Assembly: GCA_002794735.1 (NCBI GenBank) | Contig: NBAZ01000033.1 | Coordinates: 83,281 to 147,280, forward strand | Length of the DNA stretch: 64,000 nucleotides | DNA from: Pyrrhoderma lamaoense | Lineage: Eukaryota; Basidiomycota; Agaricomycetes; Hymenochaetales; Hymenochaetaceae | Direction: 5' to 3' | Shown: positions 19,450 through 42,520 of the stretch, in pieces | Layout of the letters: each line of letters starts with the position of its first letter | Numbering within the stretch: the stretch's first letter is position 1 | The notes under the pieces: model-generated | What the model was told of the DNA's origin: nothing | The model's input: the letters and a program-made list of their open reading frames with translations, nothing else | The model's database searches: none | Translations under genes and position numbers: made by a program

Positions 19450-19704
19450 CTAGGAAAAGTTGATAGTTCCCATGTTGTTACCAGAATTGTTACCAGTGTT
19501 GATACCCGTATTAAATGCACTCTTCGCGTGAGTTTGGTTATAATTGTAGATATTGTTGGAGCCGGCGTTGTGAGTATTGTTATAGGTCTTATTGTGAGTG
19601 GTGTTACTTGTGGGGTTGTTCTGATAGTTGTTTGTTTGATTGCCCGAGACATCATTATAAGTCCCAAAGCTCGCGCTACTGCTCTCATTCTGTTTGAATG
19701 TCAT
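19450..19704 (-). CDS. Small Asn/Gly-rich protein, family member A
   Basis: An intronless 84-aa frame starts MTFKQNESSSASFGTYNDV and is about one-quarter asparagine. The head matches the 'TF.Q......FGTYNDV.GNQ.NN' pattern found at the N-termini of the genes at 28419, 59399 and 63027. The tail (AFNTGINTGNNSGNNMGTIN) echoes the GINFG pattern of the other small members. There is no signal peptide, membrane segment or cysteine. A TATA-like TTATAAAG lies about 80 bp upstream (near 19786). The reverse-strand frames over the same DNA are shadows. I do not know the function. The low-complexity Asn/Gly composition suggests a disordered or self-assembling protein, which is inference. Confidence 0.65.
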   Translation of the reverse strand: MTFKQNESSSASFGTYNDVSGNQTNNYQNNPTSNTTHNKTYNNTHNAGSNNIYNYNQTHAKSAFNTGINTGNNSGNNMGTINFS

Positions 19705-20886
19705 TGTTGCGATCAGTGGGAAAGGGTCGAAAATGATTCAAGATGCGAATGGTCAGCTATGAAAAGTGTTGGAAGCACAGCTTTATAAATTTACACCAGG
19801 TAACCACGTTTTGTGCACGATGAGTAAAGTTACTACTATAACTAGAATGGAAAAAATTTATATAGGCTCAATGTCTCAACCCATATTCAAACTCGCATTC
19901 TTCTATCTTCGTATCTTATAAGCAGCTGTATCGGTGTATATGGCTGACTAGATCAACAAAATTTTATGCATTCTTTATTAATTGAAAACATAAGATATTT
20001 TGCTAACATTTACTTCAACTGATTATAAGATAGTATTAAATTTACAATTGATTTATATGCTTGGAATACATTCATTTCTTATATTATACAGATAATTCTT
20101 GATCACGGATTCTTTCTCAAGCTTAAATATCTTAGAGTCGCTAATCAAAATCTTCGTAAGTAAACTTAGTTTTCTTGTGGTTACTCTTGTAATTTCCCGC
20201 TAACATATACTTAGGCTTCCAAATGATAGATGTTGTATAGAAAGGATAGAGAGAGTGTTCTATACTGTGATCCTATTATTCTAGTATCCAAGTTTTGACA
20301 CAGATCACTTGAATCTGGGGCTTGAATCATCAACCAATATATTTGAGGACGAGCATATTTCTTTATCCAGGTTCTTCAGCCGCTGTTCCTAAAATTTCGA
20401 TTTTTCGGTTCGCGCAATAATATCCGGGCATTGGGACCCCTACATAGATCTGGATGCTAACCTGCTTTTTGTAATCAAATATTCATTGATATTATCAATA
20501 TAGTTTCGACAGACATGGAAGTTAGAGCAAGAGATCGTGAGAGAAGAATATAAAGAGACTAATTTGGAAAAAATAGAAAAAAATTTGAGTATTGATACAT
20601 ACTGTATGGTAGTTGTCCTACTATTTGTACTAGTGACGTGACACGGAAGTTATAGGGTATAAACACATATATGTTTTAGTTGCTATCCGAAAGTTAATGG
20701 AAAAGCCTTCGTGCAATTACTGCTTTCTCCGAACATCTGTATAAAAATACTGAATATAACTTATCAATATTGTCTACCAATATTAATGACATAGTATAGT
20801 TAAGAAAATTACGCAATGACTAAACTTGAGCGGTGTGATACTTAATCCATAATTTTGACATAAATCTAGGCTGTCATACATTCCTC
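19705..20886. other. Intergenic, promoter of member A
   Basis: AT-rich DNA. On the minus strand, the TATA-like site near 19786 presumably serves the gene at 19704. The rest shows no gene or repeat. Confidence 0.4.
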
Positions 20887-23598
20887 TTAAAGCAAAACTC
20901 TACCAGCCCACCTCGGAACAGGAATGCACTCTCTTACACTCCCAGAGCCCGTAAGCGCCATGACGAGTCTTTCAACGCCCATACCAAAACCTCCATGCGG
21001 CGCACCTCCATAAACCCTTAAGTCTCGATACCACGAATATTGACCAAACTCCTGGTCTCCGTCTCTCGTCTCGTTACCTTCTATGATCCCTTCCTGTTTT
21101 ACACCTGAGTACGAAGGAACTGATAGACCAGCAATTCTCATCGACTCATCCAAGACTTTCAGTCTTTCCTCCCTCAAACTCCCACCCGCAAGCTCCCCAA
21201 TACCAGGTATGAGCAAATCAAAACACTCTACTGTCTCTCCTTCCTCTCCTTCCTCCTTTTCTCCTTCTCATAATTAGCAGGCGATGTTGATGAAAACGAA
21301 TTCGTAACACGCATGTAAAAAGGCTTGATGGCTCTTGGGTAGTGTGTCACAAACACTGGAGTTGGGAGTTGGAGTTCTGTCCAACCAGCCTTCTCGGCCA
21401 GCCACCTTTCATGTTCGCTGCCGAGTTGTTCACCCCATTTTGGTACGCCACTCTCAAATTTCACCTCTCCTTCAGCTTCTGCTCGACTCAATAGCCTGAG
21501 CGCGGCTGTGTATGTAATTTTTGGCCATTTTCTCGTTGCCAGCCCACCACATTCTCGGCTTCAGAATAAAGTGCGAAAACTCTTCTCGCTCTCTTCGCAA
21601 TTGTCTCTTTCTCCGCATCTCCAGCTCCAATCCCATTCTCGCCTTCAGAGAGACCAACAGAAGATTCTTCGGAGTTAGAGAAACTAGAACCAAGGTCGAG
21701 ATCAGATTGATAAGGTGCGTAAAGTTCCTTAACCCTTCTTCCCTTCCTCTGTCTTTACAGCTCTCTCGATAGTACTTTTCACAACAGCTTCAACAACATC
21801 ACAGACCTCTCCAACTCCTCTTGTACCCTCACTCGATCCCACTGCAGACCCGATTCCGGCCCAACTCCACTCAGCCTCGAGCATCCAAAACTCCGCAAGA
21901 TGTCTCCCTGTTTGAGAATACTCAGCTCTAAACGCTGGACCAATGGTGTACACTCTCTCGTGGGAGTGGGCGAGAGCCTCTAGATGAAGCTGAGTCGATA
22001 CAGTCAAGTATGCTGGAGTATTAAAGAATAGGTGGTTGGATTTCGAATTGCCAGCATCTAAGCTATTACCGAAGTTGTTGCTAGTATTATGGTTCTGACT
22101 TGTTCCTTCGTGAGGGAGTGATGAGAGCAAGGTCGAAGATGGAACCGAAGCGGAGGAGGGGACCTGGAATCAGGGGGGCATAAACCGAAAATGCCTCCCC
22201 TGCTCCTTCGCAGTCATTAGAGGTGATTACTGGTGGATGGACGTACAAGAAACCTTCGTTCTTAAAACCAAGAAAAAGGGAAGAAGTGAATTATCAAAGG
22301 TCAGTACAAGCTCAACGTCTCAGTATAGAGAAGCAAGTGTGAGAATAGCAACAAGCTTGTATCTGCCAGGATGAAAGAGAGTAGAGAGGTAGTAGCAGTA
22401 TAAAGTAAAGGATAGATATAAGCACCGAAAAGTTCATAGACTCGATATAAAGCATTATATCTTACCATACGAACAAGCTCAAGAGTACAAATAAGCTTAG
22501 AATACAAGGATTAAGCAACTCACATCAAAATAATCCTGTACGCCTCTTTGAATTTGATGCCTTACCCGAATCATCTCTCCAAGCTTATTCGTCCTAGTCC
22601 TCAAATGACAATAGTCTCTTAAGTATGCCGCTGAGAGCTCCTTTTTTTGTAATGGATAAGTCTGTGCAAGGCATAGCATGCATATCACGGTTTGTAGGGA
22701 GTATATTGCAATATGGAAGACGTATTATGCATCCGTGTCGTACAGTATATATATAACAGTCAGACCCGAGTGTTACATCATTCCAGATTCAGACAAGGGT
22801 GGTTAATTATACATTTTTCAGCTATTCGAGCTAAGAGATAATAAAAAGAAAGAGCGCACCTCTGGAGGACAATCTCCAACGTATTCAACAGCATTTACAA
22901 CAAACTCCGGTTCTCGTCGTCCTTAGCTTCCAATGCTACATCAGAAGGAGTAGCAGTTGGGATCCTTTGAGAAGGGTTCCTCAATGTACCTCTAAGTCTC
23001 ACACTTGCACCGTTTCGAATTCTGTATTCCAGTTCATACATCAAACCCAAGCCGTTCATGTTTTCCATTCACAGCAGGAGATAGTATCATCCAAAGCCAG
23101 TATCGGAAAGTTATATCAATAAATAGTGAATGACTGAAACCGATAGCAAAAGACGCACATTTTATCCACTCTTTCCTTCTTTTCTTCTTCGTCGCTAGTT
23201 CCATGTCTAAACACCGCCTGCACCGTTTTACTCGTTGAGCCGTCTGCGAGTACAACAAACGTGACACGCTTCATCCTGCGAACGGATTTTACCCACCCGC
23301 ACAATATTTGTTCCCCCCCTGCTACCTGTGTAGCCTGTTCTGTACCATTGCCGCTACTGCTTCCATGTTCGTTACTAGCAGTAGCGTTTTCATCAGACCT
23401 ATTTGACACAGATGCATAGCTTGACTCCAGCAGTTCTCTGATAGTTGGATTCAGTAGGCGGACTTGAGTCGAATATTGTCTTTGTTGCTGTTGTACCGAC
23501 GCGCGCGCGCCTGCCCGAATGAATACCCCGAGTTTGTTGGATCGACCGTCGACACGTACCCAGTCTCGATCCACTAGCACTACCAGAACCGACGACAT
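20887..23598 (-). CDS. Asparaginyl-tRNA synthetase, probably mitochondrial
   Basis: A class II aminoacyl-tRNA synthetase that charges tRNA-Asn. The ATG at 23598 gives an Arg-rich, acid-poor leader ending RQYST, which fits a mitochondrial presequence. A second ATG at 23683 opens another frame. An OB-fold anticodon-binding domain follows ([20 protein letters not shown], then [20 protein letters not shown]). The catalytic core shows [48 protein letters not shown], motif 2 [22 protein letters not shown] (22960-21880 region, about residue 300), and motif 3 [13 protein letters not shown] near the C-terminus. An Asn-rich insert precedes LFFNTPAYL. Introns were not fully resolved. The frame slips by one base near 22913-22922, at the G6 run 22173-22178, and in the purine tract 21241-21270. 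In a housekeeping gene, three such slips look like sequence error rather than decay. Confidence 0.88.
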
Positions 23599-24702
23599 GT
23601 AATAAAGAAGGGGATAGCGCCGAGGCCTCTCTCGAAGCTGATGAAGTAGAAGAGGCGAGCAGTCCTAATCTCCGAACAGCCATGCTTGACACCAACTAGA
23701 TCACTCCCTGACACTAGTATCTCACCCACGACGGAAACACACTCGGGCACAGATTAGAGTAAAGATCGATATGACAAGAAAGCGCCTCGATATAGGTGCC
23801 AAATTTGAGTGAGGAATAAATAAATATCTTGAACCTGAGAGAGAACAGAAGAAGAAAATCGAGTCGTCGCGTGAACAATTGAGTTCGGCTCCGAAGCTGC
23901 TGTGGCAAGGAATTTGCAAGTTCGAATATCAAGGTTGGTGTAAAAAATTTCATATGCAGTTGATCCTTTACTCGTTCCACATCAAAGAAAGGGTTTCAAA
24001 CGGTGCAAGCTCCCTCAATTAATCCTATTTAAGGCATCTACGGATAATCGATGTATAACCCGATTATTGGTAGTTAGTAAAACAAGCCCTTTGACTAGCG
24101 GTCCAGCGATATGAAAAGATATTGGCCAAAGCCTTCATAAGCCTCTAATATAAGGAGACTGCTGTACAGTTCCAATTTGATACGTAAGAGAGAAGCTCAT
24201 ATGCGCACTGCTTCGCCAGACAACATCCGCTTCAAGTATACTTTATTCGACATCTACCATCATTCAAATGTACGAGCTATGATGGCTCCCTAGGAATCGA
24301 ATATGTTATGCACACAGGTCTACGAGCTGCAATGTTGATATTCGAAGGCTATGTGTACGACTCATAAATCGATCTTACAATAACTCAAAGCTTTTTTTTC
24401 TTAATCAATCAGAGCCAGAACAGGTTACGTAATATAATTGTATATCTCTCTAAGTTCTCGAAAAAATATGAGTCCTTGTTATTAATTATGTCTATCAAAC
24501 TATTTCAAACACCATTACAATTGAAGTAATTATCTCTAGCTCATTGCCACGCTGTTCTGCTCCATTATTGCATGATCAGTGCTCAAATACCTATCCACCT
24601 TCGGAGCGGGGAAAATCTTATTTATAGTCCTTTTGTCAGACTGAATATATTAAGAGATATCACATCACAACTCGTACCTACAATATGGAGGGTACTCCAT
24701 TT
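23599..24702. other. Intergenic, no gene seen
   Basis: This holds the AsnRS 5' flank, including the alternative in-frame-looking ATG at 23683, then AT-rich DNA. No gene, RNA or repeat is supported. Confidence 0.4.
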
Positions 24703-24964
24703 TTACTTCTGGGTTTGTTGTTGCGCTTTATATCTGATCGTGCCAAAGTTGATGCCATTATTGGCGCCGTGACTCTGGCGGTTTGGACCTTTATTGTTGG
24801 AGTTGATAATATTGTCGTGTATTGTGATTGAGGGAACACTTTTGGCCTCGGGACTAGTGTTACTAGTAAATATAATTTAGCTTTGACATTAGAGTTGATA
24901 GCTACATGTACATCTCGACTTACGCTTCTGGGGAGGTGCTGGCCTGGGCTTCTTTCTGATCCAT
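24703..24964 (-). CDS. Small Asn/Gly-rich protein, family member B
   Basis: Two exons, 24924-24964 and 24703-24862, are joined across a 61-nt GT..AG intron with matching phase and give 66 aa. The protein starts MDQKEAQASTSPEANTSPEA, where the intron interrupts a duplicated 'TSPEA'. The tail carries the family signature: IINSNNKG, then a 10-residue spacer, then NGINFGTI. It ends in a Gln-rich stretch. It is too short and split to be seen as a simple frame and was found by matching the signature. There is no signal peptide or membrane segment. The function is unknown. Confidence 0.6.
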
Positions 24965-25689
24965 TTTCACCGCAATGATGTGTAGTAAAGTGAGAATATG
25001 AAGAAATTGTGCAAGTAGCGTTAAGAGATAGTTGGCCCCTCAGGAGTTATACTTATAGTATTTAAGCCCTGCAAACTAGGGACACAAGCGTGAGAAGAGT
25101 CTGACCATGATCTAAATAATACCTTGCCGAGTCGGTGTATAAGCTAGAAGAAGCCTACTGTATCCCTTTACAGGTTAACGCCAGATTAGATTGGCAGGTT
25201 TATCTGTGCGTCTTCACACATTCATCCAATAGAGATTATATCGACGAGTGTCTATATTTGAGAGGCGCTCATACATTTTACTATTAGCTTAAATCACAAT
25301 AAGCTTAGGCTACTAGTGCTTCCCTGTCTGTAGATGACAATGAGCCACCATAACTTTTATATGACTCGTCTACTACCAAATGCAATCCAATGAGTCCCAT
25401 CCATATTATTTATAAGTATCATTTCAAATAGCGGCTCGTAAACGACGAGAAGCTTGAGTTAGATAAGGAGTGCATAAGACACAGGAACAGATGTATCCAA
25501 CTATACTGAAATAGATATCGTTTCAGGAAAGAAATGTACACTCGTGACTGTGACGATACTCCTGATTTAATGATTGGTTGTATGTAACCAAGAAAAACTT
25601 GTTCCCAAACACCCAAACAATTCTATTTCAGATGATTAGAAGCAACAGTTCAAAACCAGAGATTTCTGAAAAGAAAAGAAAAAAACTCA
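24965..25689. other. Intergenic, member B promoter
   Basis: AT-rich DNA upstream of member B, with a TATA-like stretch (minus-strand 'ctataagtata') near 25055. No gene or repeat is supported before the segmental block begins near 25690. Confidence 0.4.
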
Positions 25690-26451
25690 CCTAAAAAGAA
25701 CTGCGTCAGTCATAATACATGTGGTATGAACCTTATCTGGGACGTCGTTAGCACAGGTTGTGCTGGGCGCTACTCTGTAGTTAGAGTTTTATTTTCTGAA
25801 AAACGAAGACCTGTCCCATTATAATACAGCTTGGGTGATATTTGTATACATACACGTACATATACGTCAAAAAAGTTGCTCAAGATGGCCATCATTATTG
25901 TATCATGCAACAAAAAATAGATATACTTAATATATGCTCAAAGTCGATATTCTTTTCCCACTTTAGATTGTTATCACAGTAGAAGCTTAATGGCTGTATA
26001 CCAGGACTAATAGCACACGTTTATAGCGCCGGGTCATTGAAAAAATCTAGAGCGGATCGTACGAAAACTGATTCATGAACCATATTTGGGTTTGCGCACA
26101 TTGTGGTAACGCCGTAACCCCTAGTCATGACTTCCAATCATATATCGCCACCATATAGCATGTTGTAGAGAGTCAACAAAAAGCTACGACAATTTGCCTG
26201 ATCGTGATTCTCCTTAGATGAAGAAGTGGCTTATTGGGATCGCGCTGAAGTAGGTAAGCGCCCCCCCCCCTTTCTTCTCTCTCGGAAGTAGCTTCTCATA
26301 GATAACAAAATGTAAATGAAGATCCTATTATCCAGCTAAGAAAGGATAAGTCTCCTCAGTTCTTACTCCGACTCGGCGAGAGATTTTTATCATCATCATT
26401 AAGAGAATCCTATCATTTTCAAACCTATCCATCTATTAGACATGAATCGAG

Positions 26452-26459
26452 TATAAATA
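26452..26459 (+). promoter_or_regulatory. TATA box of member D
   Basis: TATAAATA lies 103 bp before the ATG at 26555. The same site and context precede member E. Confidence 0.55.
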
Positions 26460-26554
26460 TCTTTTCAAGAGGACTAAAATCGCCTGAAAACGACTTGCAT
26501 AAAGCCCCCTTCGTCAGACTCTTAGCTTTACTGCATAATATTACCAAAGTACAA

Positions 26555-26880
26555 ATGTCGAACGGCACGTCTAATAACATTCATACTATGCAAGAGCTCG
26601 TACAAATAAATACTCTAGGCAGAACTATCACACAAACACAGACTCCGAATACTTCAATCAGTTTAAAGAGTCCGGGCATACTCTCAACTCTGCCTCCAGC
26701 TCTGATCCCGAAGCTGAGGCCTCGGCTACTGACGGAGACTGTGCTCCATCTTCTTCGTCATGGGCAAATCATTCGATTATAATTAGCGAAAACACCCTTA
26801 ACAGTCATAACGAGGGAGAGTGTCAAGATAATAGCGGCAACACCGGTATCAATTTTGGAAACATCGAATATGGTTCTTAA
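26555..26880 (+). pseudogene. Small Asn-rich protein, member D, frameshifted E-type copy
   Basis: It starts MSNGTSNNIHTMQELV and aligns codon by codon with the intact gene at 36484. At about 26643 one base is missing compared with that copy (cagatctccga against cagactccga). The ATG frame then runs on in a wrong frame and stops at 26782. In the next frame the family tail is fully preserved to 26880, including NTLNSHNEGE and TGINFGNIEYGS. The intact downstream frame implies that the break is recent, or is a sequence error like others in this window. Confidence 0.65.
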
Positions 26881-28189: not shown

Positions 28190-28419
28190 TTATTTCTTCA
28201 CATCCACAGACGAGCTGTTTACAATGCTACCGAAATTTATACCAGCATTAACGCAATGGCTTTGCTGAGTGTCTCCTTTGTTGTTGGAGTTTATCGTGTT
28301 GCCGGATACAGTGTAGTGGTAAACAACCTTAGATTGATCGTTATTTATTTGATTTCCTGCTACATCGTTATATGCCCCATGAAATACAGCTGTACTTTCC
28401 CCAGGAGGTTGAATGTCAT
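28190..28419 (-). pseudogene. Small Asn-rich protein, member C, head out of frame
   Basis: The frame ending at 28190 encodes PPGESTAVFHGAYNDVAGNQ, then SGNTINSNNKGD and NAGINFGSIVN, the full family pattern. No ATG occurs in that frame. The expected start (ATG at 28417-28419, reading MTFN) is one base out of register, with the slip lying between about 28402 and 28411. Either one base is missing in the sequence or the copy is dead. It is the counterpart of member F in block II. A TATA box sits about 100 bp upstream. Confidence 0.55.
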
Positions 28420-28518
28420 GGTGAAAGAGCAAGGTGGTGGGTATGAGAGAGAATTGATATGTGTGGATTTGTGTAGGGCAGTGCTTTGAGTAAGATGTGT
28501 GTATTACTCTCCAACGAC

Positions 28519-28526
28519 TATTTATA
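28519..28526 (-). promoter_or_regulatory. TATA box of member C
   Basis: Minus-strand TATAAATA about 100 bp before the ATG at 28419. The surrounding 'ccaacgactatttatacata' is shared with member F and, inverted, with the fusion gene. Confidence 0.5.
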
Positions 28527-29539
28527 CATACTACTTCAAAGGTTACGTAACACAGACCAAGTTCTTGGTACAAAAAACAAAAGGAATTCTTCAATAAAGT
28601 AATCCAGTCGGCGAACCTTATTTAGCATGTTGATCTATCGCGATCAATCTATCCCGACGCATGCGATAGCGCAGAAGAATGGCAGGAGTACTATTAAAAC
28701 GACGTTAATCGCCGCAAAGCAAGCTTTGAATTAATATCAGGGCTCGGGGAGTGTAGCCTATTTCTGAGTAGCCAAATCAAAGGGAAAGGGCTGCTTAGAG
28801 ATTGTTATAGTTTTGTGACATCTGAAGAGGCAGTGCAATACTTCCGTATATGTGTATGGAAGCGTCGATGCATAGCTAGCCTATGTTTGAGAAGAAAAAT
28901 GTTTGTACGAAATATCAAGTGCTTCATTTTTATAAGAAGTATAGATCCATATGGCACCTCTAAGCTCTGATAATGCGATTATATGATTGGGCTCAACGGA
29001 AAGTTGATCACATGAGTTGTGGCTCAGTTTATCCTAGCCTGAATAGCCGACATCGCTAGCCGTAGCTAAGGTGCATCTACACATATGAAGAAAGCTCGTA
29101 ATATATGTGACATACACTTTCAAGCTCACAGAAGAGTACTATAGAGAGATATCGTATAAGTGATGTCTGGGGCTTGTGTAAGATACCGTTTTGGTAACAC
29201 CCCAAACCGGGCAGCAGAGCCTAACAAGCTCTGATATGTTTAGTGTTAAGTTATCTTTAATCGTCCTATTCTACGTCCTCTCTTTCGATCTACCAGACAC
29301 TTCATCTTCGACATTTATATTAGAAGAGCATTGTATCGAGATATGCTAGCAGCAGTCCAAGGAGGACATCAGTTTACACAGTTAACTCAAACCACGGAAA
29401 CTTCTTAGTTAGCCGAATTGTAGAGCATGAGTCACCCATTTAACCGTGTCGGTGGTGGATACTCATCAGCACAACTCAATTAAACGATCATACTAGCACA
29501 ATATAAGTTGAATTTTTTTCTGTGTCTATCAAAACGCAA

Positions 29540-29720
29540 GCTAAAGGGAAATAAAGAGAGTGCGCATCTCCAGACAACAGTATCCATGCCAAAGCACTTA
29601 ACAACGAGCTCTGGTTCTCGTTACCGTTCCTTAGCTACACTGTTGCACCAGTAAAGATTCCAATGGAGATCCTCCGAAAGAGTATCCTTCTTTCGTCATC
29701 CGCCAACACCTCTAAATGCG
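29540..29720 (-). pseudogene. Relic of asparaginyl-tRNA synthetase exon
   Basis: This stretch resembles 22860-23010 of the AsnRS gene in the same orientation. It shares 'ctctggttctcgt' against 'ctccggttctcgtcgt', then 'ccttagct', 'gatcct.cgaaag.gt' and 'cacctctaa' in the same order and spacing. Reading frames are interrupted, and nothing else of the gene is visible nearby. It appears to be an old partial copy carried next to the segmental block. Confidence 0.55.
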
Positions 29721-32700
29721 GCTCGTACCATAAATTATATGTGAGTGTGTTAATCACCAATGGTTTTGCGACCTCTATCAACCATTACTTACACAAGGAG
29801 TTCAATCTTTCATTAAAGTAATCGAGATGGATTTTTAGGCTTGTCCTTATATTCCCTCCGCTTAAAAGTAGTGATAAATAGATCTGATTTTGCCTCTGCC
29901 CCAGATTTGTACGTATCCTGTTCCGTTACCCCTAGTATCTGCTTACTACTTGAGGCTTATATGTGGTGTGATAGAAACAATTATTTTTATGCATATGAGC
30001 TCTTACGCTGTGCAATCCTCCCACTTTAATATTTTTGGCGGTGTTTGTGATCTACGTCCGTAAATAAGCACATTGAAATCGCCGGATCTCTCGCGTAATT
30101 ATCCTATGCAATACTACAATAGGATAACAGAATAGAAATCCGAGGTGGCATGTTACCGTTGTACATGTAATATTGTGATTACCAAAGTGCAAGTCTTCAC
30201 TTTACGGAATCATTTAATCAAACCTGTATCCATCATCCGATTGCTAGCATCAAGCATCCTGAAAACACCGGAATCGGAGGTCTGGCCAGCCCGAGCTATG
30301 AAATGAGAGATTCACAGCATTCAGTTTGGCATTACCTAATTTGAGTTCGGTTAATGCTACTGTGCCTGAACCAAATCTACAAGCAAGGAACTAGTGCCAG
30401 CGTTAGAGGTAGAACTTGTTCATCATCGGCCTGAAGTGATAAACGCCTGTATGCCAACTCAATTCCATCCTTTATACTGAAAAGTATACATTACTGGCTG
30501 ATCGGTAATGACAAATACTGATTTTGGTTCTTTATTCGTTGTTACAGTTCTAGAATCAAGATTCTCAATAGTTCTTCGATTCTGATATTCTAGGCTAGCT
30601 TCTAGTCCCGGATGGTATTGGATACTTACAGCTCACTGATATAACGCCTGTGGTGGTAAGATATGCTGAAGTTAACACAAGGTTTGGTCTCAGTGGCTGT
30701 GAGTACTAACGGAGAGATTCTAACGCTTCATGAGGTGACAAAGAACGACACTGCTTAACTCTCCAAATCGAAGGTGTTTTTCGTGTACCCGAGATTCCTT
30801 CCGTTCCATTACAGAATAGAAGCTAACGGATGGATTATGGAGTACATCGAAAACATGGTATAATTATACTTCTTATGCTATCTGATGAACTTTTGGAAGC
30901 TCCTTTACACACATAAATACGGGATTTAAAACTTCGTCATCACTAGCCTCCCTTCCCTCCTGATTCTACTGTACCGTAAAGAGCTCTCACCTTATGTCTC
31001 TGGAAACCGACATAGAAGTTATAAAACACACTACTCTTGGGCAATACATTCAGGTCTCAATATGTACGCTCCTTATTTACGATACTTGTAAGTATCCGCA
31101 TATCATATCTTTTTAGTATTCCGTATTCCAAATTGAAGCCGTCGTAACCAGTAATAACCACACATAAAGAAGTAAGCATCGGCACACGCACATCGCTTTA
31201 ATCCCTTACAAATCTAGACAACCGACCTTCTTTTCTCAGGTCAAGTACTTTTGGGTAAACCTGATATTGTCATAACCTATGTGATGAGTCATTCAAGAAA
31301 CGTATTTTGGCCTAGACGGGGAACCAATATAATCTATTACATATCGCTTACTTTACCGTATGTATCTTCAATTTCTTCCTGATTCAGTGCTGATACATAA
31401 AAAACAGAATCGTTACTTTGGTATAATTGACGCACTCTCGAGGATTCCATGTACGTGATAACAAATAGTACCCCTCTACAACACCGATAGTCGTTTGTTA
31501 ACCCATTGGGCCACAGATGATTCTTTAACTGTTACCACGAAGTTGTGTGTACGTCAAACCCATTCTTTAGTCTATGCGATTTCAAACTGACTTAAGCGCC
31601 TCAGACGTATTTACTCATGAGTCTATATAGTTGACCGCTAAATTTATGGACTATGCAGGTGCTTTCAGTCTTTGGACTAGAGATATAGGAGGTATGGTTT
31701 TTATCGTGTCATACTAGAATCAAGCTAAAAAAAGTTTGAAGACCTCTTAACCGTCATAATTGTCGATTGCAAGTATTCTTATATGCCGAGCTCATAGAAG
31801 TGTCTTAATGTGTATAAACAGATGTACTAATTTTGAGAGTACTTGCATTTTGGAACAATAGTCAGTTCTTTCACCCATCATCGTATACGGAAGTATACTA
31901 AAGCTATACAGACAAGATATTAGCGATCACTTTCAAATCATTTCTAATATTTGAGGCAGCTGCAAAACTAGTTATATTTGTGACAATGATTTTAAAGGAT
32001 GATCGTGCGTCCAAAGTTACTCTAAAATGCTAATATGAACTGACCAGTAACAGCCCGCGCAACTGTCTTAGCGAAAGGAATTACAGTCTGTGGAGGTAAC
32101 CAAGATCAGCTCGCACTTATAGCTAAGCTAGAGATGATTGACTGGTAAGAACTGAAGTAATTTTGCTTTCTCGTAGTTAATCCATAACTATAGGTTGATG
32201 CCGACAATCTTTGAGTTCTTACTCATGATAATGACGTTTTATCAGACGGAAAGGTACTGGAGGATGTCAGGCGCTAAGGTATCTCGCCTGATCAAAGTGA
32301 TCGTAACGGACCAGATCATATACTATTTCATGCACGTATTGCCGTTCTATAGATCTCATTACCTGTATCTAATACCCTCCAATGAAGGATCCTGTTCTGC
32401 AGCATAGTGAAGATTGTATTCTTCAGGATTCAGTCCTCAGCAACGTATACCAATTTGGGCGCTTTCCAAGTTCTTGGTAGCCCAAGTTTCTTGTGCCTTC
32501 TTGGAAGTCGTATGTTTTTCAATTTGAAGGAAGCTGCTATTATAGAGGAGAATGGAGATATAAACCGCCAAAACACTGTCTTTAGCACAGTCAGTAACCT
32601 TAGGTTTAGAGCTCCCTCTCATTCGTCCGCAGGTAGATTCATTTGTCTAAATTTCGCATATGAACTATTTCCGTCTAACGCTTTACTTAAATGAATTAGA

Positions 32701-33353: not shown

Positions 33354-33633
33354 CCATTTATGTCTGTCGGGACATTAAGAGAGCGGAATAGAATCCTGCA
33401 CAGCTACTACCATGATCTGAAATCCACATTCTATGTATTAATCTGGATTTTGTCTTAAGCAGAGTCGTAAGTGGTTTAAAAAGCGAAAAGAGGATCAAGC
33501 TACCACAATCCTAGAGGAATGGCATCTTCCTAATACTTCGAAGCAAGCTGCTCTCTTCAACGCTATATTTGTCTTCCAAACGAGTTTCTCGGGGAATGCT
33601 AGACTGTCTTACCCTGAGCTTGCCAGTATCTAG
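33354..33633 (+). pseudogene. FunK1-type fungal protein kinase relic
   Basis: One frame reads PFMSVGTLRERNRILHSYYH followed by DLKSTFYVLIWIL. This matches the C-lobe hallmark of FunK1 kinases ('GTLPFMS...H..HDLES.FYVL.WI'). It then meets a stop at about 33458. A second frame continues with EEWHLPNTSKQAALFNAIF and ends at 33633, like the FunK1 tail. The N-terminal lobe and catalytic loop are not visible. FunK1 is a kinase family expanded in Agaricomycetes. This copy is broken by at least one stop and one frame change. Confidence 0.55.
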
Positions 33634-35589: not shown

Positions 35590-36376
35590 AAACTCACCGC
35601 GTCAATCATAATACATGCATGAAAAATGAGTTTTTCTTGGATTCGCCGTCAAAACCGGGTGTGCTGGGCGCTAATCAGTAGCTACAGTTTCTTTTCCGAA
35701 AAAAAAATATGCCTCAGCCCCATTATAATACAGCTTGGGTGGTATTTGTATACATGCATGTACACATACGTATACGTCAAACAACTTGCTCAAGATATAT
35801 TGTTGCATGCAACAAAAAAAACAGATACATTCGACTGTATACTTAAAGTCCATATTCTTTTCCCACTTTAGATTGTTCCAAAAGTATAAGCTTGCGACTG
35901 TATACCAGGACTAATAACACACCTTTATAGCGCCCGAGTCATTAAAAGAAGCTAGATCGGATCGTGCGAAAACTGATTCATGAACCATATTTGGGTTTTC
36001 GCGCACAATTGCGGTAAACACCGTAACACTCCTGTTTATAGCTTCCAATTATATCTTGCTACGGTATAGTGTGTAGTGTTTGGAGGCTCAACAAAAAAAT
36101 TTATGACAATTTGACTAATCCGTAATACTCCTTAGATGGGGAGTGGCTTATTGGAATTGCGCTGAAGTAGGTAAGTGCCTCTCTTTTCTTCTCTCCTTGA
36201 GATAGACTTTTTATCGATAACGACATGTACGAAAGTATCCTCAAGCCTTGATTAGCCAGCTAACAGAATAATCTCTGTAGTTTATGCTCTGACTCGGACG
36301 AAAAAAAAATCATAATAATCACTAAAAGCGTCATATCCTCTTTCAAGCCTATCCCCTCAGTTAGACATGAATTGAG

Positions 36377-36384
36377 TATAAATA
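36377..36384 (+). promoter_or_regulatory. TATA box of member E
   Basis: TATAAATA lies 107 bp before the ATG at 36484, in a context shared with member D. Confidence 0.55.
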
Positions 36385-36483
36385 ATTCACCAAGAGGTCC
36401 AAGTATCATCTAACCACCCACTTGCATAACTCCCGCTTCCCAGCCTTTTAAGCTTTACTACTTTACATCGCCCGCAGTGAACA

Positions 36484-36810
36484 ATGTCGAACAATCCATC
36501 CAGTAACATTCATACCATGCAAGAGCTCGTATCAAAGAGTACTCCAAACAACACTACCACACAAACACAGATCTCCGACCACTTCAATCAGTTGAAACAG
36601 CCTGGAAATACTCTTAACTCTGCCTCCAGCACTGAGCTCAAAGCTGAGTCCTCGGCTACTAGCGGAAACTGTGCTCCGTCTTCTTCGCCATGGGCAAATC
36701 GTTCGATAACGATTAGTGGAAACACCCTTAACAGTAATAACGAGGGAGGGTGTCAAGATAATAGCGGTAACACTGGTATCAATTTTGGAAACATCGAATA
36801 TGGTTTTTAA
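36484..36810 (+). CDS. Small Asn/Ser/Thr-rich protein, family member E
   Basis: An intact, intronless 108-aa frame starting MSNNPSSNIHTMQELVSKST. The head is Thr/Gln-rich (TTTQTQISDHFNQLK), the middle is Ser-rich with one Cys (SGNCAPSSSPWANRS), and the tail carries the family signature SGNTLNSNNEGG and TGINFGNIEYGF. 'PGNTLNS' in the middle and 'SGNTLNSNN' in the tail form an internal pseudo-repeat. There is no signal peptide or membrane segment. It converges with member F about 1.35 kb away. This is the best reference copy for the broken member D and the C-terminal half of the fusion gene at 40391. The function is unknown. Confidence 0.7.
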   Translation: MSNNPSSNIHTMQELVSKSTPNNTTTQTQISDHFNQLKQPGNTLNSASSTELKAESSATSGNCAPSSSPWANRSITISGNTLNSNNEGGCQDNSGNTGINFGNIEYGF

Positions 36811-38160
36811 TCCGTCTCGTATGTGCCGAAGGTATGTTCCATGATATCACTTTACATCGTCTGCGTGTATATATCCTAATAAAATATAAATCTCTAAATC
36901 TAGGATACTAGATTTTTCTGGACAAATTTTAGATATTGTGATAGTACTAGGAGGACATAGAAATAGTGAGTAAAAGCAAAGAACCCTTAGTATTATTCTT
37001 ACATATAATTAGCTAGTTTAATTGTGCTAAAGACGGAATGATGGTTAGAAGTTGATTTGCTACTATTCATTGTTGTTATCATGAACTTTACCTATGTACA
37101 CGACTAGTGTTGCTAATGCAAGTGTCTTTCGCATATAACATCATATCAAAGGTGTACAAAACTCGCTGAAAATACGTATGAAGTGTAAAAAAAACAACAT
37201 CTCAAAAGCCTACAGATTGTTCTTTTTTGAAGCATTATATCATATATTAAGATGTGTTCCCTTTTGTGTTTTATATGTTTTATACTATAGCCACTCACAG
37301 GTAGATGTTGACTTTTCTGTATAACAATAGTAGACATACTTTTCTCTTGAGACGATCTGACATACATGAGATGCTTGCACCAGTTTTCCTCTATATCAAT
37401 GGTATAACATATGTAAGCTCAAGTAAACCACATGTTTGATTATATGTATCGTGGTTTATATCATTACCATAATCCATCGTCCTGGATCAATCACATTAAT
37501 AGAAGCCTCTCTTCGTTTATTGGTTCTTCTCCTATCTATTATAACACCCCAATAATGAAATCAGCTCCAATTGCCAACCAACCCACCCTTCTAGTCGTCG
37601 CAAACAGCCAAGAACATTATCTCTGAGCACATAAGCGAGACTTCGAATGAAATGATCATTGAATAGGGTTTGTAATAACCGTTCTAACAGGATATCTCTC
37701 GATATATTCTTCGCACATACCGACCCCGAGAACAGATTCAATGCACGTGCACTTGCGTCTCATGGGAAGAGCGCAAAACCATAATGAACGATAAATCTTG
37801 TTTTGAACATGTATCAGACATACTACTAGTAATAGACATCCTTTAAAAGCTCTGAAGGTTAGTTCCTCACAAACCAAGTCTTATCAATGATTTCAAACTG
37901 AGTTTTTATTTATAATGTAATACATGTTAGAAGGAAAAGAAAGCAACAAGAGCAGCAATGTGAAACCACGAAAAATCCCCTATTTCCGTAAAGTAACTTC
38001 AACAGCTATCCTATTATAGAAGAAACGATCCGACACCGAACCACTGCTTTATCATAGTATCACCCTGCCAAATATCAGACATCAGGTTAATTAGATTAAA
38101 GTGGCAACAACAACAACGCCAATGAACTCATACCCTTCCAATGATGAACAGGATGCTTCT

Positions 38161-38472
38161 CTAGTCCTTACGTCCTCGATGCGTAATACTAATGTTCCCA
38201 AAATTAATTCCACAATTGCCTAACCGATCTCGCTTAGGATCATTATTACTGTTGATAGTGTTTCCACATATCGTAATTTGATGTACTCCCCAGGGCTGGT
38301 CGAAACTGGGCCAGCTTACTGTAATACCAGAGGTTACTTCACGAACCTCCGACTCACTTTCCCCAGACGTGTGGGTCTCTTCGGACTGGCTGGTCTGCAC
38401 AGACTCCTTGTTCTCCCCAGACTGGTAGGTTTCTTCAGTTTGGTTAGTTTCCTCAGGATTGATAGCGGTCAT
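38161..38472 (-). CDS. Small Glu/Ser/Thr-rich protein, family member F
   Basis: The ATG at 38472 gives 103 aa. It begins MTAINPEETNQTEETYQSGE and has a run of near-repeats of the type (S/T)(E/Q)ET..SGE, then SWPSFDQPWG. The family signature ICGNTINSNNDP and GNCGINFGNIS follows, and the tail is basic (THRGRKD). The frame stays open for 27 codons upstream, but the lower ATG is preferred because the fusion copy keeps the same context and the TATA box sits 122 bp before it. The acidic, low-complexity head differs from the E-type head while the tail is shared, so the tail is the conserved module. The function is unknown. Confidence 0.65.
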   Translation of the reverse strand: MTAINPEETNQTEETYQSGENKESVQTSQSEETHTSGESESEVREVTSGITVSWPSFDQPWGVHQITICGNTINSNNDPKRDRLGNCGINFGNISITHRGRKD

Positions 38473-38593
38473 GATGGATAGAGTAAAGTGATGAGGACGA
38501 GTACGAGTACGAGCGTGGGTGAAATCTGATACGTGTGGTTTTGTATAGAGCAATGGTGGTTCGAGTAAGATCTATGTACCGCTCTCCAACGAC

Positions 38594-38601
38594 TATTTAT
38601 A
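38594..38601 (-). promoter_or_regulatory. TATA box of member F
   Basis: Minus-strand TATAAATA about 122 bp before the ATG at 38472, in a context shared with members C and G. Confidence 0.5.
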
Positions 38602-39038
38602 CATACAGCTTCAAAGGTTTACGTACCTCCCACCAAGTTCTTGGGTACAAAAAACAAACAAAATGAATTCATTTTAATAAAGTGGTTTGAGCATACTTAA
38701 AACGGTAATCGCCGCAAACCAAACACCGCATCAATATCAAGGGCACTAACCATTTAGCCTACTTATAAGTATCCAAGACAAAGGCAAAGATTGCCTAGAG
38801 AAAGATAGCGTTATGGTGTCTAAAGTCCCAGTCTCGATTCGAAGTGGGAAATGTCAGGCCATGTTCTATAAATAATAATTTTAGACCTATAAGGCAACCC
38901 TCTAAGCTCCGATAGCTGTATTGTATTATAAGGTTCAAAGAAAAGCTGATCACATAAGCTGTGGCTCAGTTTATCCTATCCAGAATGGCCGCTATCTCCA
39001 GCCACAGGTAAGGTGTATCGAGACTGAATCAATCAAAT

Positions 39039-39399
39039 AGCTAGGAAGTAAAGTAAGAAGTAACATAGAGTATATATCGTTCCATAAGTGACCATCTTAC
39101 CCGTTTTCTACCTCTCATAGATACGAGTGTGTAGGGTGTAACAATTCGTAAGCACAGAAGAAGAACATTATCATAATCTTGATTGGTGGGTCCTTGGTAC
39201 CAAATCCGAAGGACAAAGAAGGAAGAGTAGGAAGTAGGAATAGTATCGTTCCTTTTTATGTTCTTCTTGGTTGAACTAATTATTACCTTTATACACACCC
39301 GGTTGGTTGGGTGGTAAGGGGTAAAAGGTCGTCTCCCGACGTCCCTCCTACATATGCTCAGGATTTTCTCTCTTGTTACGCTTTATAATGTTATGGTGG
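39039..39399 (+). repeat. Dispersed repeat, copy 1, at palindrome centre
   Basis: About 360 bp that recurs inverted at 48428-48808. Shared stretches include 'gctaggaagtaaagtaag', 'gtaggaagtaggaa', 'ttcttcttggttgaact' and 'catatgctcaggattttctc'. It has no coding capacity. It sits between the two arms of the large palindrome. It could be a solo LTR or a non-autonomous element; I could not define terminal repeats or a target duplication. Confidence 0.6.
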
Positions 39400-39695
39400 C
39401 GCGATTGTCATCACTCATTCTTTTCATGTATTGTATTGAGTCCCGTGATTCGAGTTAACAAAGTCAATTGATGTACATGTGCATGTACCTCCTTGGATCT
39501 CATGATGATATATCTCGTAACATCGCTCTGCTGGCTGCTACGCTTAATAATTGAATGTGGAAGAAGATACTAAAAGATAATTACTCATTAAACATAACAG
39601 AGCTTGGTAGGCTCTTTCTTCTTCAGTCTCGATACACCTTATCTGTGGCTGGAGATAGCGGCCGTTCTGGATAGGATAAACCGAGCCACAGCTTA

Positions 39696-39906
39696 CTATA
39701 CTCCACAAAAGTTTTGCGACAGCATGAGTTTTTAATGAAAAAATATATAGACTTAGTATATAGTATTATCAATTTAAATACATATAAATCTATCTATTAT
39801 CTTTAGCTAACATACATATTTGATCAGAACGAAGACGTGTAGTTCTTGTACAATATCTACGACAAATGAATTATAAGGTGTGTCGCAAAACTTTTGTGGA
39901 GTATAG
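39696..39906. mobile_element. MITE with 26-bp perfect TIRs and TA target duplication
   Basis: A 211-bp element whose first and last 26 bases are exact inverted repeats, beginning CTATACTCCACAAAAGTTTT. It is flanked by TA on each side (39694-39695 and 39907-39908). It has no coding capacity. The matching position in the sister arm (about 38955-38965, cacaTAagctgtgg) is the uninterrupted empty site with a single TA, so the borders are exact. TIRs of this kind and a TA duplication fit a Tc1/mariner-type non-autonomous element. No transposase is present in the window. Confidence 0.9.
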
Positions 39907-40261
39907 TATGTGATCAACTTTTCTTTGAACCTTATAATACAATACAGCTATCGGAGCTTAGAGGGTTGCCTTATAAGTCTAAACTTATTATTTATAGAAC
40001 ATGGCCTGATATTTCCCACTTCGAATCAAGACTGAGACTTTAGATGCCATAACGCTATCTTTCTCTAGGCAATCTTTGCTTTTGTCTTGGATACTTATAA
40101 GTAGGCTAAATGGTTAGTGCCCTTGATATTGATGCGGTGTTTGGTTTGCGGCGATTACCGTTTTGAGTATGCTCATACCACTTTATTATAATGAATTCAT
40201 TTTGTTTGGTTTTTGTACCCAAGAACTTGGTGGGAGGTACGTAAACCTTTGAAGTCGTATG

Positions 40262-40269
40262 TATAAATA
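40262..40269 (+). promoter_or_regulatory. TATA box of fusion gene G
   Basis: TATAAATA about 125 bp before the ATG at 40391, inherited from the F-type promoter. Confidence 0.5.
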
Positions 40270-40390
40270 GTCGTTGGAGAGCGGTACATAGATCTTACTC
40301 AGACCACCATTGCTCTATACAAAACCACACGTATCAGATTTCACCCACGCTCGTACTCGTACTCGTCCTCATCACTTTACTCTATCCATC

Positions 40391-40978
40391 ATGACCGCTA
40401 TCAATCCTGAGGAAACTAACGAATCTGAAGAGACCAGCCAGTCTGGGGAGAACAAGGAGTCTGTGCAGACCAGTCAGTCCAAAGAAACCCACACGTCTGG
40501 AGAAAGTGAATCGGAGGTTCGTGAAGTAACCTCTGGTATTACAGTAAGCTGGCCCATTTTCGACCAGCCCTGGGGAACACATCAAATTACGATATGTGGA
40601 AACACTATCAACAGTAATTATGATCCCAAGCGAGATCGGTTTGGCAATTGTGGAATTAATTTTGGGAACATTCATACCATGCAAGGGCTCGTATCAAAGA
40701 GTACATGTACTCCAAACAAAACTACCACACAAACACAGATCTCCGATCACTTCAATCAGTTGAAACAGTCTGGAAATACTCTTAACTCTGCCTCCAGCAC
40801 TGAGCACAAAGCTGAGTCCTCGGCTACTAGCGGAAACTGTGCTCCATCTTCTTCGCCATGGTCAAATCGTTCGATTACAATTAGCGGAAACACTCTTACC
40901 AGTCATAACGAGGGAGGGTGTCAAGGTAATAGCAGTAACGCCTGTATCAATTTTGGAAACATCCAATATGGTTTATAA
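40391..40978 (+). CDS. Fusion of F-type and E-type small Asn-rich proteins, member G
   Basis: An intact frame of 195 aa from the ATG at 40391 (MTAINPEETNESEETSQSGE). It is open for a further 27 codons upstream. Residues 1 to about 94 copy member F up to GNCGINFGNI. The frame then passes without a break into the E-type sequence HTMQGLVSKSTCTPNKTTTQ and ends with a second family signature, SGNTLTSHNEGG and ACINFGNIQYGL. The protein therefore carries two copies of the signature. The junction falls in 'aacatt' (40667-40672), which is common to both parents. The gene is driven by the F-type promoter. Keeping one open frame across 588 bp in such degenerate surroundings suggests it is either young or selected. 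Confidence 0.68.
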   Translation: MTAINPEETNESEETSQSGENKESVQTSQSKETHTSGESESEVREVTSGITVSWPIFDQPWGTHQITICGNTINSNYDPKRDRFGNCGINFGNIHTMQGLVSKSTCTPNKTTTQTQISDHFNQLKQSGNTLNSASSTEHKAESSATSGNCAPSSSPWSNRSITISGNTLTSHNEGGCQGNSSNACINFGNIQYGL

Positions 40979-41391
40979 TCAGTCTCATACGAGGGTATGT
41001 TCCGTGATATCACTTTACATCATCTGCGTGTATATATCCTAATAAAATATGAACCCCTCAATCTAGGATACTAGATTTTCCTGGACAAACTTCCAATATT
41101 GTGATGGTACCCGGGAAGACATAGAAATAGTGAGCAAAGAATTTTTAGTATTATTCTTACATATAATTAGCTAGTCTAATTGTGCTAAAGATGGGATGAT
41201 GGTTAGAAGTTGATTTGCTACTATTCATTGTTGTTATTATGAACTTTACCTATGTACACGACTACTGTTGCTAATACAAGTGTCTTTCGCATATAACATC
41301 ATATCAAAGGTGTACAAAACTCGCTAAAATTACGTATGAAGTGTAAAATAACATCTGAGAATTCTACAAATTATACTTTTTTTGTAAGGAC
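40667..41391 (+). repeat. E-type segment inserted into F-type gene copy
   Basis: About 725 bp that match 36504-37230 (coding and 3' flank of member E), placed inside the inverted copy of gene F. Left of it the sequence follows member F. Right of it, from 'gtaaggactagagaagcatcc', it resumes the member F 3' end exactly where it left off. The left junction has 6-bp microhomology (aacatt). Confidence 0.7.
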
Positions 41392-42520
41392 TAGAGAAGC
41401 ATCCCGTTCATCATTGGAAGGGTATGAGCTCATTGTCGTTGTTGTTGTTGTCACTTTAATCTGATTAACCTAATGTCTGATATTTGGCAGGTTCATACTA
41501 TGATAAAACAGTGTTTCGGTGTCGGATCGTTTCTTCTATGATAGGATAGCTATTGAAGTTACTTTACGGAAATAGGGGATTTTTCGTGGTTTCACATTGC
41601 TGCTCTTGTTGATTTCTTTTCCTTTTAACATGTATTACATTATAAATAAATAAATAAAAACTCAGCTCGAAATCATTGATAAAACTTGGCTTTGTGGGGA
41701 ACTAACCTTTAGAACTTTTAAAGGATGTCTATCACTAGTAATATGCTTGATACATGTTCAAAACAAGATTTATCGTTCATCATGATTTCGCGCTCTTCCC
41801 ATGAGACGCAAGTGCACGTGCATCGAATCTGTTCTCGGCGGCAGTATGTGCGAAGAAGATATTAAGAGATATCCTGTTAGAACGGTTATTACAAACCCTA
41901 TCCAATGATCATTTTGTTCGAAGTCTCGCTTATGTGCTCAAAGATAATGTTCTTGGCTGTTTGCGACGACTAGAAGGGTGGATTAGATGGTAATTGGATC
42001 TGATTTCAGGATTATAGATAGGAGAAGAACCAATAAACGAAGAGAGACTTCTCTTAATGTGCTTAATCTAGGACGATGTATTATAGTAGTCATATAAACC
42101 ACGATACATATACATAAACAAACATGTGGTTTTACTTGAGCTTACATATATTATACCATCAATATAGAGGAAAACCTGGGTGCAAGCATCTCATGTACGT
42201 CAGATCGTCTCAAGAGAAAAAAGTATGTCTACTATCGCTATACAGAAAAGCCAACATCTACCGGGTGAGTAGCTATAGTATAAAACATATAAAACACAAA
42301 AGGAAACACATCTTAATATATGATATAATGCTTCAAAAAAAGAAAAAAAAGAATAATTTGTAGACTTTTGAGACGGGTTTTTTTTTTTTTACACTTTCAT
42401 ACATACTTTCAGCAAGTTATGTACACATCCAATATGATATTATAATTATATGCGAAAGACTCTTGTATTAGCAACGGTAGTCATGTACATAGGTAAAGTT
42501 CATAATGACAACAATGAATA

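What the first reader, a model, noticed from the sequence alone, without database searches (positions are those of the whole stretch)
19450..42520. A dispersed family of small Asn/Gly-rich proteins with a shared tail signature
Members A (19450), B (24703), C (28190), D (26555), E (36484), F (38161) and G (40391) share the pattern GNT(I/L)NSNN, a spacer of about 8-12 residues, then GINFG(N/T/S)I. Their heads are different (TSPEA-type, E-type, F-type, MTF-type). The tail is thus the conserved module. The alternation of Asn, Gly and beta-branched residues in two near-repeats resembles the general look of fungal amyloid signalling motifs such as that of HET-s. No family name comes to mind. The signature is visible in the sequence; a prion or signalling role is inference.
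Basis: partly seen in the sequence, partly recalled or inferred. Interest (0 to 1): 0.78.

Follow-up and report, generated by a model that had tools for sequence, protein, structure and literature searches.

The report
Small fungal proteins sharing receptor motifs
A mushroom-group fungus carries a cluster of tiny asparagine- and glycine-rich proteins with a conserved tail that looks like the self-assembly motifs of immune cell-death signalling, and two of them also carry the short front motif of the fungus's own immune-type receptors, so the cluster may be a small signalling module, although this has not been tested.

Summary
The tail is real: seven copies in six genes (B to F once, G twice), from about four lineages. 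Member A lacks it. Profiles trained without a group recover that group (E 3.2e-8 to 2.5e-12). Between lineages synonymous sites are near saturation (pS 0.74-1.21) while pN is 0.24-0.36, so the tail is under purifying selection. No other copy was found in this 30.65 Mb genome. Its second half, N-x-G-I-N-F-G, resembles the PP/RHIM amyloid core (G-phi-Q-phi-G) with Asn for Gln, rather than HET-s.

The receptor link is in the head, not the tail. A and C carry the N-terminal motif (YNDVxGNQxNN) of the fungus's NACHT receptors: a profile of receptor N-termini ranks C and A first of 2,131 window frames. Of 60 places with this head, 45 lie 133-306 bp before a listed NACHT-type domain; 15 do not, A and C among them. 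None of 30 receptor loci examined carries the tail.

Best reading: small motif-only proteins tied to receptor signalling, the tail being a lineage-private homotypic assembly motif. Amyloid formation is untested. C and D have interrupted frames. New variant of a known kind.

The parts
19450..19704 (-). A: 84-aa Asn-rich protein; NLR-type head (19600-19698), no tail
   Evidence: head found by a profile made from NLR N-termini (E 5.4e-6); tblastn with an NLR protein also lands on it (E 0.003); no tail profile lists it
24703..24964 (-). B: 66-aa protein of two exons (24924-24964 and 24703-24862; intron gtaagt...tag), tail at 24730-24834
   Evidence: left-out group recovered at E 5.4e-10; the intron is read from the sequence, not from transcripts
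26555..26880 (+). D: copy of E with an interrupted frame; tail frame still open, tail at 26770-26877
28190..28621 (-). C: open frame with both NLR-type head (28349-28372 core) and tail (28220-28324); no in-frame ATG at the expected start
   Evidence: head E 1.9e-6; tail left-out E 2.5e-12
36484..36810 (+). E: open 108-aa frame, Ser/Thr/Asn-rich head, C-terminal tail (36703-36804)
38161..38472 (-). F: 103-aa protein (from its first ATG), Ser/Thr/Glu-rich head, tail at 38188-38286
   Evidence: left-out E 3.2e-8
40391..40978 (+). G: 195-aa fusion of an F-type and an E-type unit; two tails (40580-40675 and 40871-40972)
37223..42340 (.). Palindromic duplication that made F/G1 (largest inverted repeats 777, 323 and 267 bp, 91-95%)
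   Evidence: I1-I5
59286..59399 (-). I: exon with a diverged NLR-type head at the start of a larger non-NLR gene (limits by eye, to about 58069)
   Evidence: (E 0.12 with the NLR-only profile, weak)
62915..63028 (-). H: paralogous exon with a diverged NLR-type head (gene limits by eye, down to about 60600)
   Evidence: (E 0.09, weak)
2910..6157 (+). NACHT-WD40 NLR of the same window; no significant head or tail match in front of it

Best explanation
The locus encodes a small, locally duplicating family of motif-only proteins attached to the fungus's NLR signalling repertoire. Shown: (1) a 30-32-residue tail, usually near the C terminus, is a conserved module under purifying selection; (2) A and C carry the N-terminal motif of this fungus's NACHT receptors, and C carries both modules in one frame; (3) elsewhere in the genome the same head occurs in front of small N/G-rich frames without a receptor (two places read). 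Inferred: head and tail are short homotypic assembly motifs of the amyloid-signalling kind. A triggered NLR would expose or multimerise its head, recruit head-bearing small proteins by like-to-like beta stacking, and a protein with both modules (C type) could hand the signal on to tail-bearing proteins (B, E, F, G). As none has a recognisable effector domain, they would act as adaptors, amplifiers or decoys of the signalosome, not as killers.
For: Tail real and selected: (pS 0.74-1.21 against pN 0.24-0.36; Fisher p 1.5e-3 to 2.4e-9 in 6 of 6 pairs of E, F, C, B; pairs share sequences and are not independent). Tail's second half N-x-G-I-N-F-G mirrors the published PP/RHIM core G-phi-Q-phi-G / NxGxQxGxN (passages of PMC7885112, and of PMC9815663) with N for Q; the spaced pattern has 6 hits in the window six frames, all tails, and 0 in 120 NLR proteins or 31 other loci. 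Head shared with NLRs: a profile from 6 NLR N-termini finds C 1.9e-6 and A 5.4e-6 as the best 2 of 2,131 frames; tblastn of three NLR proteins against the window hits, besides the window's own NLR, the heads of A (E 0.003-0.014) and C (0.043-0.097) best; 22 exact matches of the core pattern against 0 in the reversed control, A and C among them; 45 of 60 head places stand 133-306 bp before a NACHT-type domain. Two head places without a listed NACHT were read and look like small free-standing proteins (C39, C10). Two Pyrrhoderma noxium NLRs start with the head (E 2.1e-5 and 7.5e-5 over 120 proteins).
Against: No NLR examined carries the tail (30 NLR loci, no match better than E 3.9; no genome-wide match found outside the window), so the classical pairing of one motif on receptor and partner is not met for the tail. 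C, the only window frame with both modules, has no in-frame start; A has no tail. No Pfam domain reaches its cut-off in A, C, E, F, G or the B and D tail frames (below cut-off: BORCS8 in E at 0.0018, FAM176 in G at 0.068). AlphaFold2 gives no confident fold (pLDDT 33.9 and 43.0), and a recalled prion-propensity scale did not separate the proteins from NLR controls. The tail misses the PP core Gln, and the PP comparison was made after seeing the sequence. The unspaced G-phi-N-phi-G also occurs once in the 120 NLR proteins. Recent copies show no significant constraint. No expression data.
Confidence: 0.4

Rival explanations
1. The tail family is a lineage-private family of short, mostly disordered proteins whose tail binds some other partner (protein, nucleic acid or membrane) as a monomer; no amyloid, no NLR role. 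The head in A and C is a coincidental capture of an NLR first exon.
For: Tail under selection but absent from the 30 NLR loci examined and not found elsewhere in the genome; no confident beta fold.
Against: Does not explain why two small genes of the cluster carry the NLR motif, or why head-bearing small frames without a receptor exist elsewhere, nor the PP/RHIM-like core.
Confidence: 0.3
2. Debris of NLR genes: A and C are decayed NLR N-termini left behind by receptor turnover, and the tail genes are duplicated relics of one such fragment.
For: C and D have interrupted frames; recent palindromic duplication; constraint between the recent copies is not significant; NLR families turn over fast (general knowledge).
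Against: Four tail lineages keep amino acids while synonymous sites saturate; A, E, F, G have open frames; three NLR proteins run by tblastn against the window find the heads of A and C but no NACHT remnant beside them (other matches there E 1.8 or worse); the two other small head genes that were read have their own putative intron and Gly- or Asn/Gly-rich end.
Confidence: 0.15
3. Allorecognition or mating-type-like determinants: a rapidly duplicating cluster where copy number and head sequence differ between strains, with the tail as a common docking site.
For: Recent direct and inverted copies with different heads; NLRs with short N-terminal motifs act in fungal incompatibility in ascomycetes (literature, recalled).
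Against: No second haplotype covers 19-42 kb: the overlapping contig C56 covers only window 52220-64000, so no polymorphism could be seen.
Confidence: 0.1

Closest known systems
PP (pseudo-palindromic, RHIM-like) amyloid signalling motif of fungal NLRs and HELLP/CgHELLP; mammalian RHIM
   Same: Short N/G-rich motif near the C terminus of a non-NLR protein; core of two glycines flanking hydrophobic-polar-hydrophobic (G-I-N-F-G against G-phi-Q-phi-G) with Asn four residues before the centre
   Different: Central residue is Asn in 7 of 7 tails; the Asn after the core, where present, is at +3, not +4; no NLR with the motif found; no HeLo-like domain found; amyloid formation untested
NLR05/08/22/29/44 amyloid-like motif group of Agaricomycete NLR N-termini (PMC9815663)
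   Same: Head motif lies at the very N terminus of dozens of NACHT receptors of one basidiomycete genome
   Different: Published profiles could not be compared (figures and supplements not readable here); the paper's Table 1 lists 0 neighbours and 0 effectors for the group, whereas here small frames without a receptor carry the head at their own N terminus
HET-s / HRAM beta-solenoid motif
   Same: N/G-rich, two near-repeats, fungal, proposed self-assembly
   Different: By inspection no pair of 21-residue repeats; no HeLo domain found (the control genomes of that search gave nothing either, so not decisive)
CARD-only and PYRIN-only proteins of animals (recalled, no call)
   Same: Small proteins made of little more than the assembly module of a receptor
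   Different: Folded death domains, not short N/G-rich motifs

Membership tests
PP / RHIM-like amyloid signalling motif (tail) | Core G-phi-Q-phi-G, pattern NxGxQxGxN | tested here: not met
   Tails read N-x-G-I-N-F-G-(N/S/T)-I in 6 of 7 (G2 has C for the first G); centre is N in 7 of 7
PP / RHIM-like amyloid signalling motif (tail) | Same motif on an NLR N terminus and on a partner protein | tested here: not met
   30 NLR loci (of 90 listed): no profile match better than E 3.9; no genome-wide match found outside the window
PP / RHIM-like amyloid signalling motif (tail) | Forms amyloid and propagates as a prion | not testable with these tools
   Needs peptides or GFP fusions; AlphaFold2 and the composition score were uninformative
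HET-s / HRAM | Two 21-residue repeats at the C terminus | tested here: not met
   Tail is 30-32 residues; by inspection of the alignment no such repeat pair
HET-s / HRAM | HeLo domain on the same protein | tested here: not met
   No Pfam domain at cut-off in A, C, E, F, G or the B and D tail frames; the genome-wide HeLo search is undecided, its controls were silent
Basidiomycete NLR05/08/22/29/44 amyloid-like motif (head) | Lies at the very N terminus of NLRs, in dozens per genome | tested here: met
   45 of 60 head places precede a listed NACHT-type domain by 133-306 bp; the places were collected with NLR-like and H/I-like queries, so the ratio is not an unbiased census
Basidiomycete NLR05/08/22/29/44 amyloid-like motif (head) | Matches the published motif profile | not testable with these tools
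Head of A and C as the NLR N-terminal motif of this fungus | Detected by a profile made from NLR N-termini only, above all other frames | tested here: met
   C E 1.9e-6 and A E 5.4e-6, next frame 0.09; tblastn agrees
NLR fragment or pseudogene (A, C) | Remnant NACHT sequence downstream of the head | tested here: not met
   tblastn of three NLR proteins: nothing beside A or C but the heads, other matches E 1.8 or worse; no listed NACHT or NPHP3_N place downstream (lists scored 90 of 187 and 150 of 226 candidates)

The most novel reading that the evidence does not exclude
A two-motif relay: NLR heads template a head-plus-tail adaptor (C type), which templates tail-only proteins. The tail would be an Asn-centred, RHIM-like amyloid motif confined to this lineage, and the free-standing head proteins (A, and those on contigs C39 and C10) would be partner proteins for the large basidiomycete group of NLR N-terminal motifs that Table 1 of PMC9815663 lists without neighbours or effectors.
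Probability: 0.15. Interest if true: 0.85.

Novelty: new variant of a known kind. Interest (0 to 1): 0.56.

Why it matters
Hundreds of basidiomycete NLRs carry short N-terminal amyloid-like motifs, and Table 1 of PMC9815663 (section 19) lists no neighbour and no effector for the largest group. If small proteins that share the receptor head are its partners, the question of what these receptors act on becomes directly testable with peptides and GFP fusions. The tail would add a selected, apparently lineage-private relative of the RHIM-type core.

Tried and rejected
Tail in NLR N-termini: not found in 30 of the 90 NACHT places listed (best chance matches E 3.9 and 5.3); for the rest only the genome-wide searches apply. 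One search scored only 7 first-look candidates, and sees exact matches of the second block only.

Homologues in other species: E found none (9 candidates) and the NLR N terminus none (44 candidates). A control with the NACHT part of the same NLR found 594 proteins, of which the best 120 were seen; named ones come from Pyrrhoderma, Sanghuangporus and Fomitiporia. So fungi are held, but one search missed the two head-bearing Pyrrhoderma proteins that one search shows, so the negative is weak for a motif of this length.

Structure: AlphaFold2 on G without alignment (pLDDT 33.9) and on E with 6 sequences (43.0): no usable model, so no fold search was made. PDB by tail profile: one chance hit at E 4.3.

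Prion-propensity (PAPA-like) and aggregation scales, constants recalled: rejected as evidence because 117 of 120 NLR control proteins also passed the threshold.

HeLo domain in the genome: none, but the control genomes also gave nothing: undecided.

dN/dS of the recent pairs: E/G2 0.50 and F/G1 0.42, with intervals of pN-pS spanning zero; D/G2 tails 0.97: inconclusive. The deep pairs carry the argument; the 22-codon version used blocks chosen for conservation, so the whole-tail version is used (for E/B the counted synonymous changes exceed the sites, i.e. saturation, and were capped for the Fisher test).

First count of heads before a NACHT was 29 of 60; two more were seen by reading (L059, L060); with the broader NPHP3_N list it became 45 of 60.

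PMC12261475 was opened (first part of six) and not used.

Full report
What was checked. The window is G000:C33:83281-147280 of a 30.65 Mb assembly in 72 contigs. Named relatives among the 120 NLR-like proteins seen are Pyrrhoderma noxium (Hymenochaetales), Sanghuangporus and Fomitiporia, so the fungus is probably one of the Hymenochaetales; this is inference. Six-frame reading finds the signature in B, C, D, E, F and twice in G, but not in A. Strictly, the first block GNT(I/L)NSNN is exact in 3 of 7 tails and the second, GINFG(N/T/S)I, in 6 of 7; the spacer is 10-12 residues.

Independence and chance. E, D and the end of G are direct DNA copies; F and the start of G are arms of a 777-bp inverted repeat, 95% identical, within a larger palindromic duplication. 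G is therefore a fusion, and there are about four lineages: E/D/G2, F/G1, C, B. Profiles trained without a group still found it: E/D 1.6e-10 and 1.4e-8, F 3.2e-8, C 2.5e-12, B 5.4e-10 over 2,131 window frames; A is listed by none of the five tail profiles even at E 1000. A peptide search of the whole genome gave 7 places, all in this window (only 7 candidates passed its first look). The DNA pattern for N-x-G-I-N-F-G has 7 exact matches in the genome against 0 for the reversed control; 6 are tails and the seventh contains a TGA in frame.

Selection. Over whole tails, spacer included, the six comparisons among E, F, C and B give pS 0.74-1.21 and pN 0.24-0.36, Fisher p from 1.5e-3 to 2.4e-9; the pairs share sequences and are not independent. 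The letters of the tail have been kept while silent sites were replaced. The recent pairs E/G2 and F/G1 have ratios of 0.50 and 0.42, but their intervals include no difference, and the D/G2 tails have a ratio of 0.97. Two members are not intact: D's frame is interrupted before the tail, and C has no in-frame ATG at the expected start. They are described here, not mended.

What the tail looks like. The isolated tail has no Pfam match, and no Pfam domain reaches its cut-off in A, C, E, F, G or the tail frames of B and D. Its second half reads N-x-G-I-N-F-G-(N/S/T)-I. In passages read, PMC7885112 gives the RHIM core as G-(I,V)-Q-(I,V)-G, shared with the PP motif, and stresses flanking N and G residues; PMC9815663 gives PP as NxGxQxGxN. 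The tail has this layout with Asn for the central Gln. The spaced pattern N.G-phi-(N/Q)-phi-G has 0 hits in 120 NLR proteins (60,203 residues), 0 in six-frame translations of 31 other loci (30 NLR loci and L058), and 6 in the window, all of them tails; the shorter G-phi-N-phi-G has 1 hit in the 120 NLR proteins. Shuffling a tail's own letters reproduces its spaced N-centred form in 97 to 467 of 200,000 trials. The comparison was made after seeing the sequence, so it is a lead. By the strict rule the tail is not a PP motif.

The head. Of 30 NLR loci of the same genome (of 90 listed), 8 have an N-terminal motif of the type MPFNQTGPSNYAHFAGTYNDVTGNQIHNVYN. A has MTFKQNESSSASFGTYNDVSGNQTNN, and C has AVFHGAYNDVAGNQINN in the frame of its tail. 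A profile of six NLR N-termini alone ranks C (1.9e-6) and A (5.4e-6) first of 2,131 window frames, followed by exons H (0.09) and I (0.12) of another gene family at 55-63 kb. Three NLR proteins run by tblastn against the window find its own NLR at 2910-4436, then the heads of A (E 0.003-0.014) and C (0.043-0.097); no other match there is better than E 1.8, so no NACHT remnant is seen beside A or C. A degenerate DNA pattern for the core has 22 exact matches in the genome against 0 reversed; A and C are two of them. Pooling searches gives 60 places. With the first NACHT list (90 of 187 candidates scored) 29 of 60 had a NACHT within 1.5 kb downstream; with the NPHP3_N list (150 of 226 scored) 45 of 60 did, at 133-306 bp. 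These places came from NLR-like and H/I-like queries, so the ratio is not an unbiased census, and a place without a listed domain may still have one. Of the 15 others, 6 are A, C, H, I and the two C56 copies of H and I; 4 are on C39, 2 on C10, and 1 each on C27, C14 and C57. Two of the 15 were read beyond the window: C39:32440 and C10:34049 look like small proteins with the head, one putative intron and a Gly- or Asn/Gly-rich end. Of the 120 NLR-like proteins seen (of 594), 2 begin with the head, both from Pyrrhoderma noxium (E 2.1e-5 and 7.5e-5 over 120 proteins); of the 9 entries that bear an organism name, those are 2 of 9. Many of the unnamed entries start after the head region, so this is a lower bound.

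Interpretation. PMC9815663 (sections 19, 28 and 56 read, others by passages) describes a group of motifs at the very N terminus of Agaricomycete NLRs (NLR05/08/22/29/44), often dozens per genome, for which Table 1 lists 0 genomic neighbours and 0 effectors with the motif at their C terminus. The head found here has that position and abundance; whether it matches those profiles could not be tested. Small proteins with the head at their own N terminus would have escaped a search of C termini. I therefore read the locus as motif-only proteins connected to NLR signalling: A (head), C (head plus tail, interrupted), and B, E, F, G (tail). The mechanism of like-to-like beta stacking is inferred from these families, not shown. 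The lack of any examined NLR with the tail (30 loci; and 67 genome-wide) means the tail would act downstream of, or apart from, the receptors.

Limits. No transcripts, no strain comparison (contig C56 overlaps only window 52220-64000, at 98.9%), no usable structure, no informative aggregation score, and a protein search too weak for so short a motif. Literature searches: 4 of 4 listed; 15 of 16; 1 of 1; 12 of 3,516; 10 of 43; no title or abstract start listed there concerns this tail or small head-only NLR partners in basidiomycetes. That library holds openly licensed papers only, so this does not show that nothing is in print.

Noticed in passing
window 55000-63100, minus strand: Three paralogous multi-exon genes (J, I, H) with a second N/G-rich motif (FGSRNVGNVIYNKEGDTFNSVSNTKSGDSINNS) in an early exon and, further on, weak matches to the RNase H1 N-terminal (Cauli_VI) domain, below Pfam's cut-off. 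H and I begin with the diverged NLR-type head.
   Followed up: partly
window 52220-64000 and contig C56:32825-44607: C56 is a 98.9% identical overlapping copy of the window's end and continues beyond it, as a second haplotype or an unmerged overlap would.
   Followed up: partly
window 37223-42340: Large palindromic duplication (arms of 777, 323, 267, 110 and 76 bp among others) that inverted F into the first half of G and fused it to an E-type unit.
   Followed up: yes
window 2078-6696, plus strand: A NACHT-WD40 NLR in the same window without a significant head match in front of it.
   Followed up: partly
window 20887-23598 minus, and 29560-29860: A multi-exon gene that looks like an asparaginyl-tRNA synthetase (recalled motif, no call), and by eye a decayed partial copy of it near 29.6 kb.
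   Followed up: no
G000 contig C39:26053-44797: Four head-motif places within 19 kb and no listed NACHT domain on that strand of the contig; the one read (L058) looks like a small head plus Gly-rich protein, so this may be a second cluster of free-standing head genes.
   Followed up: partly
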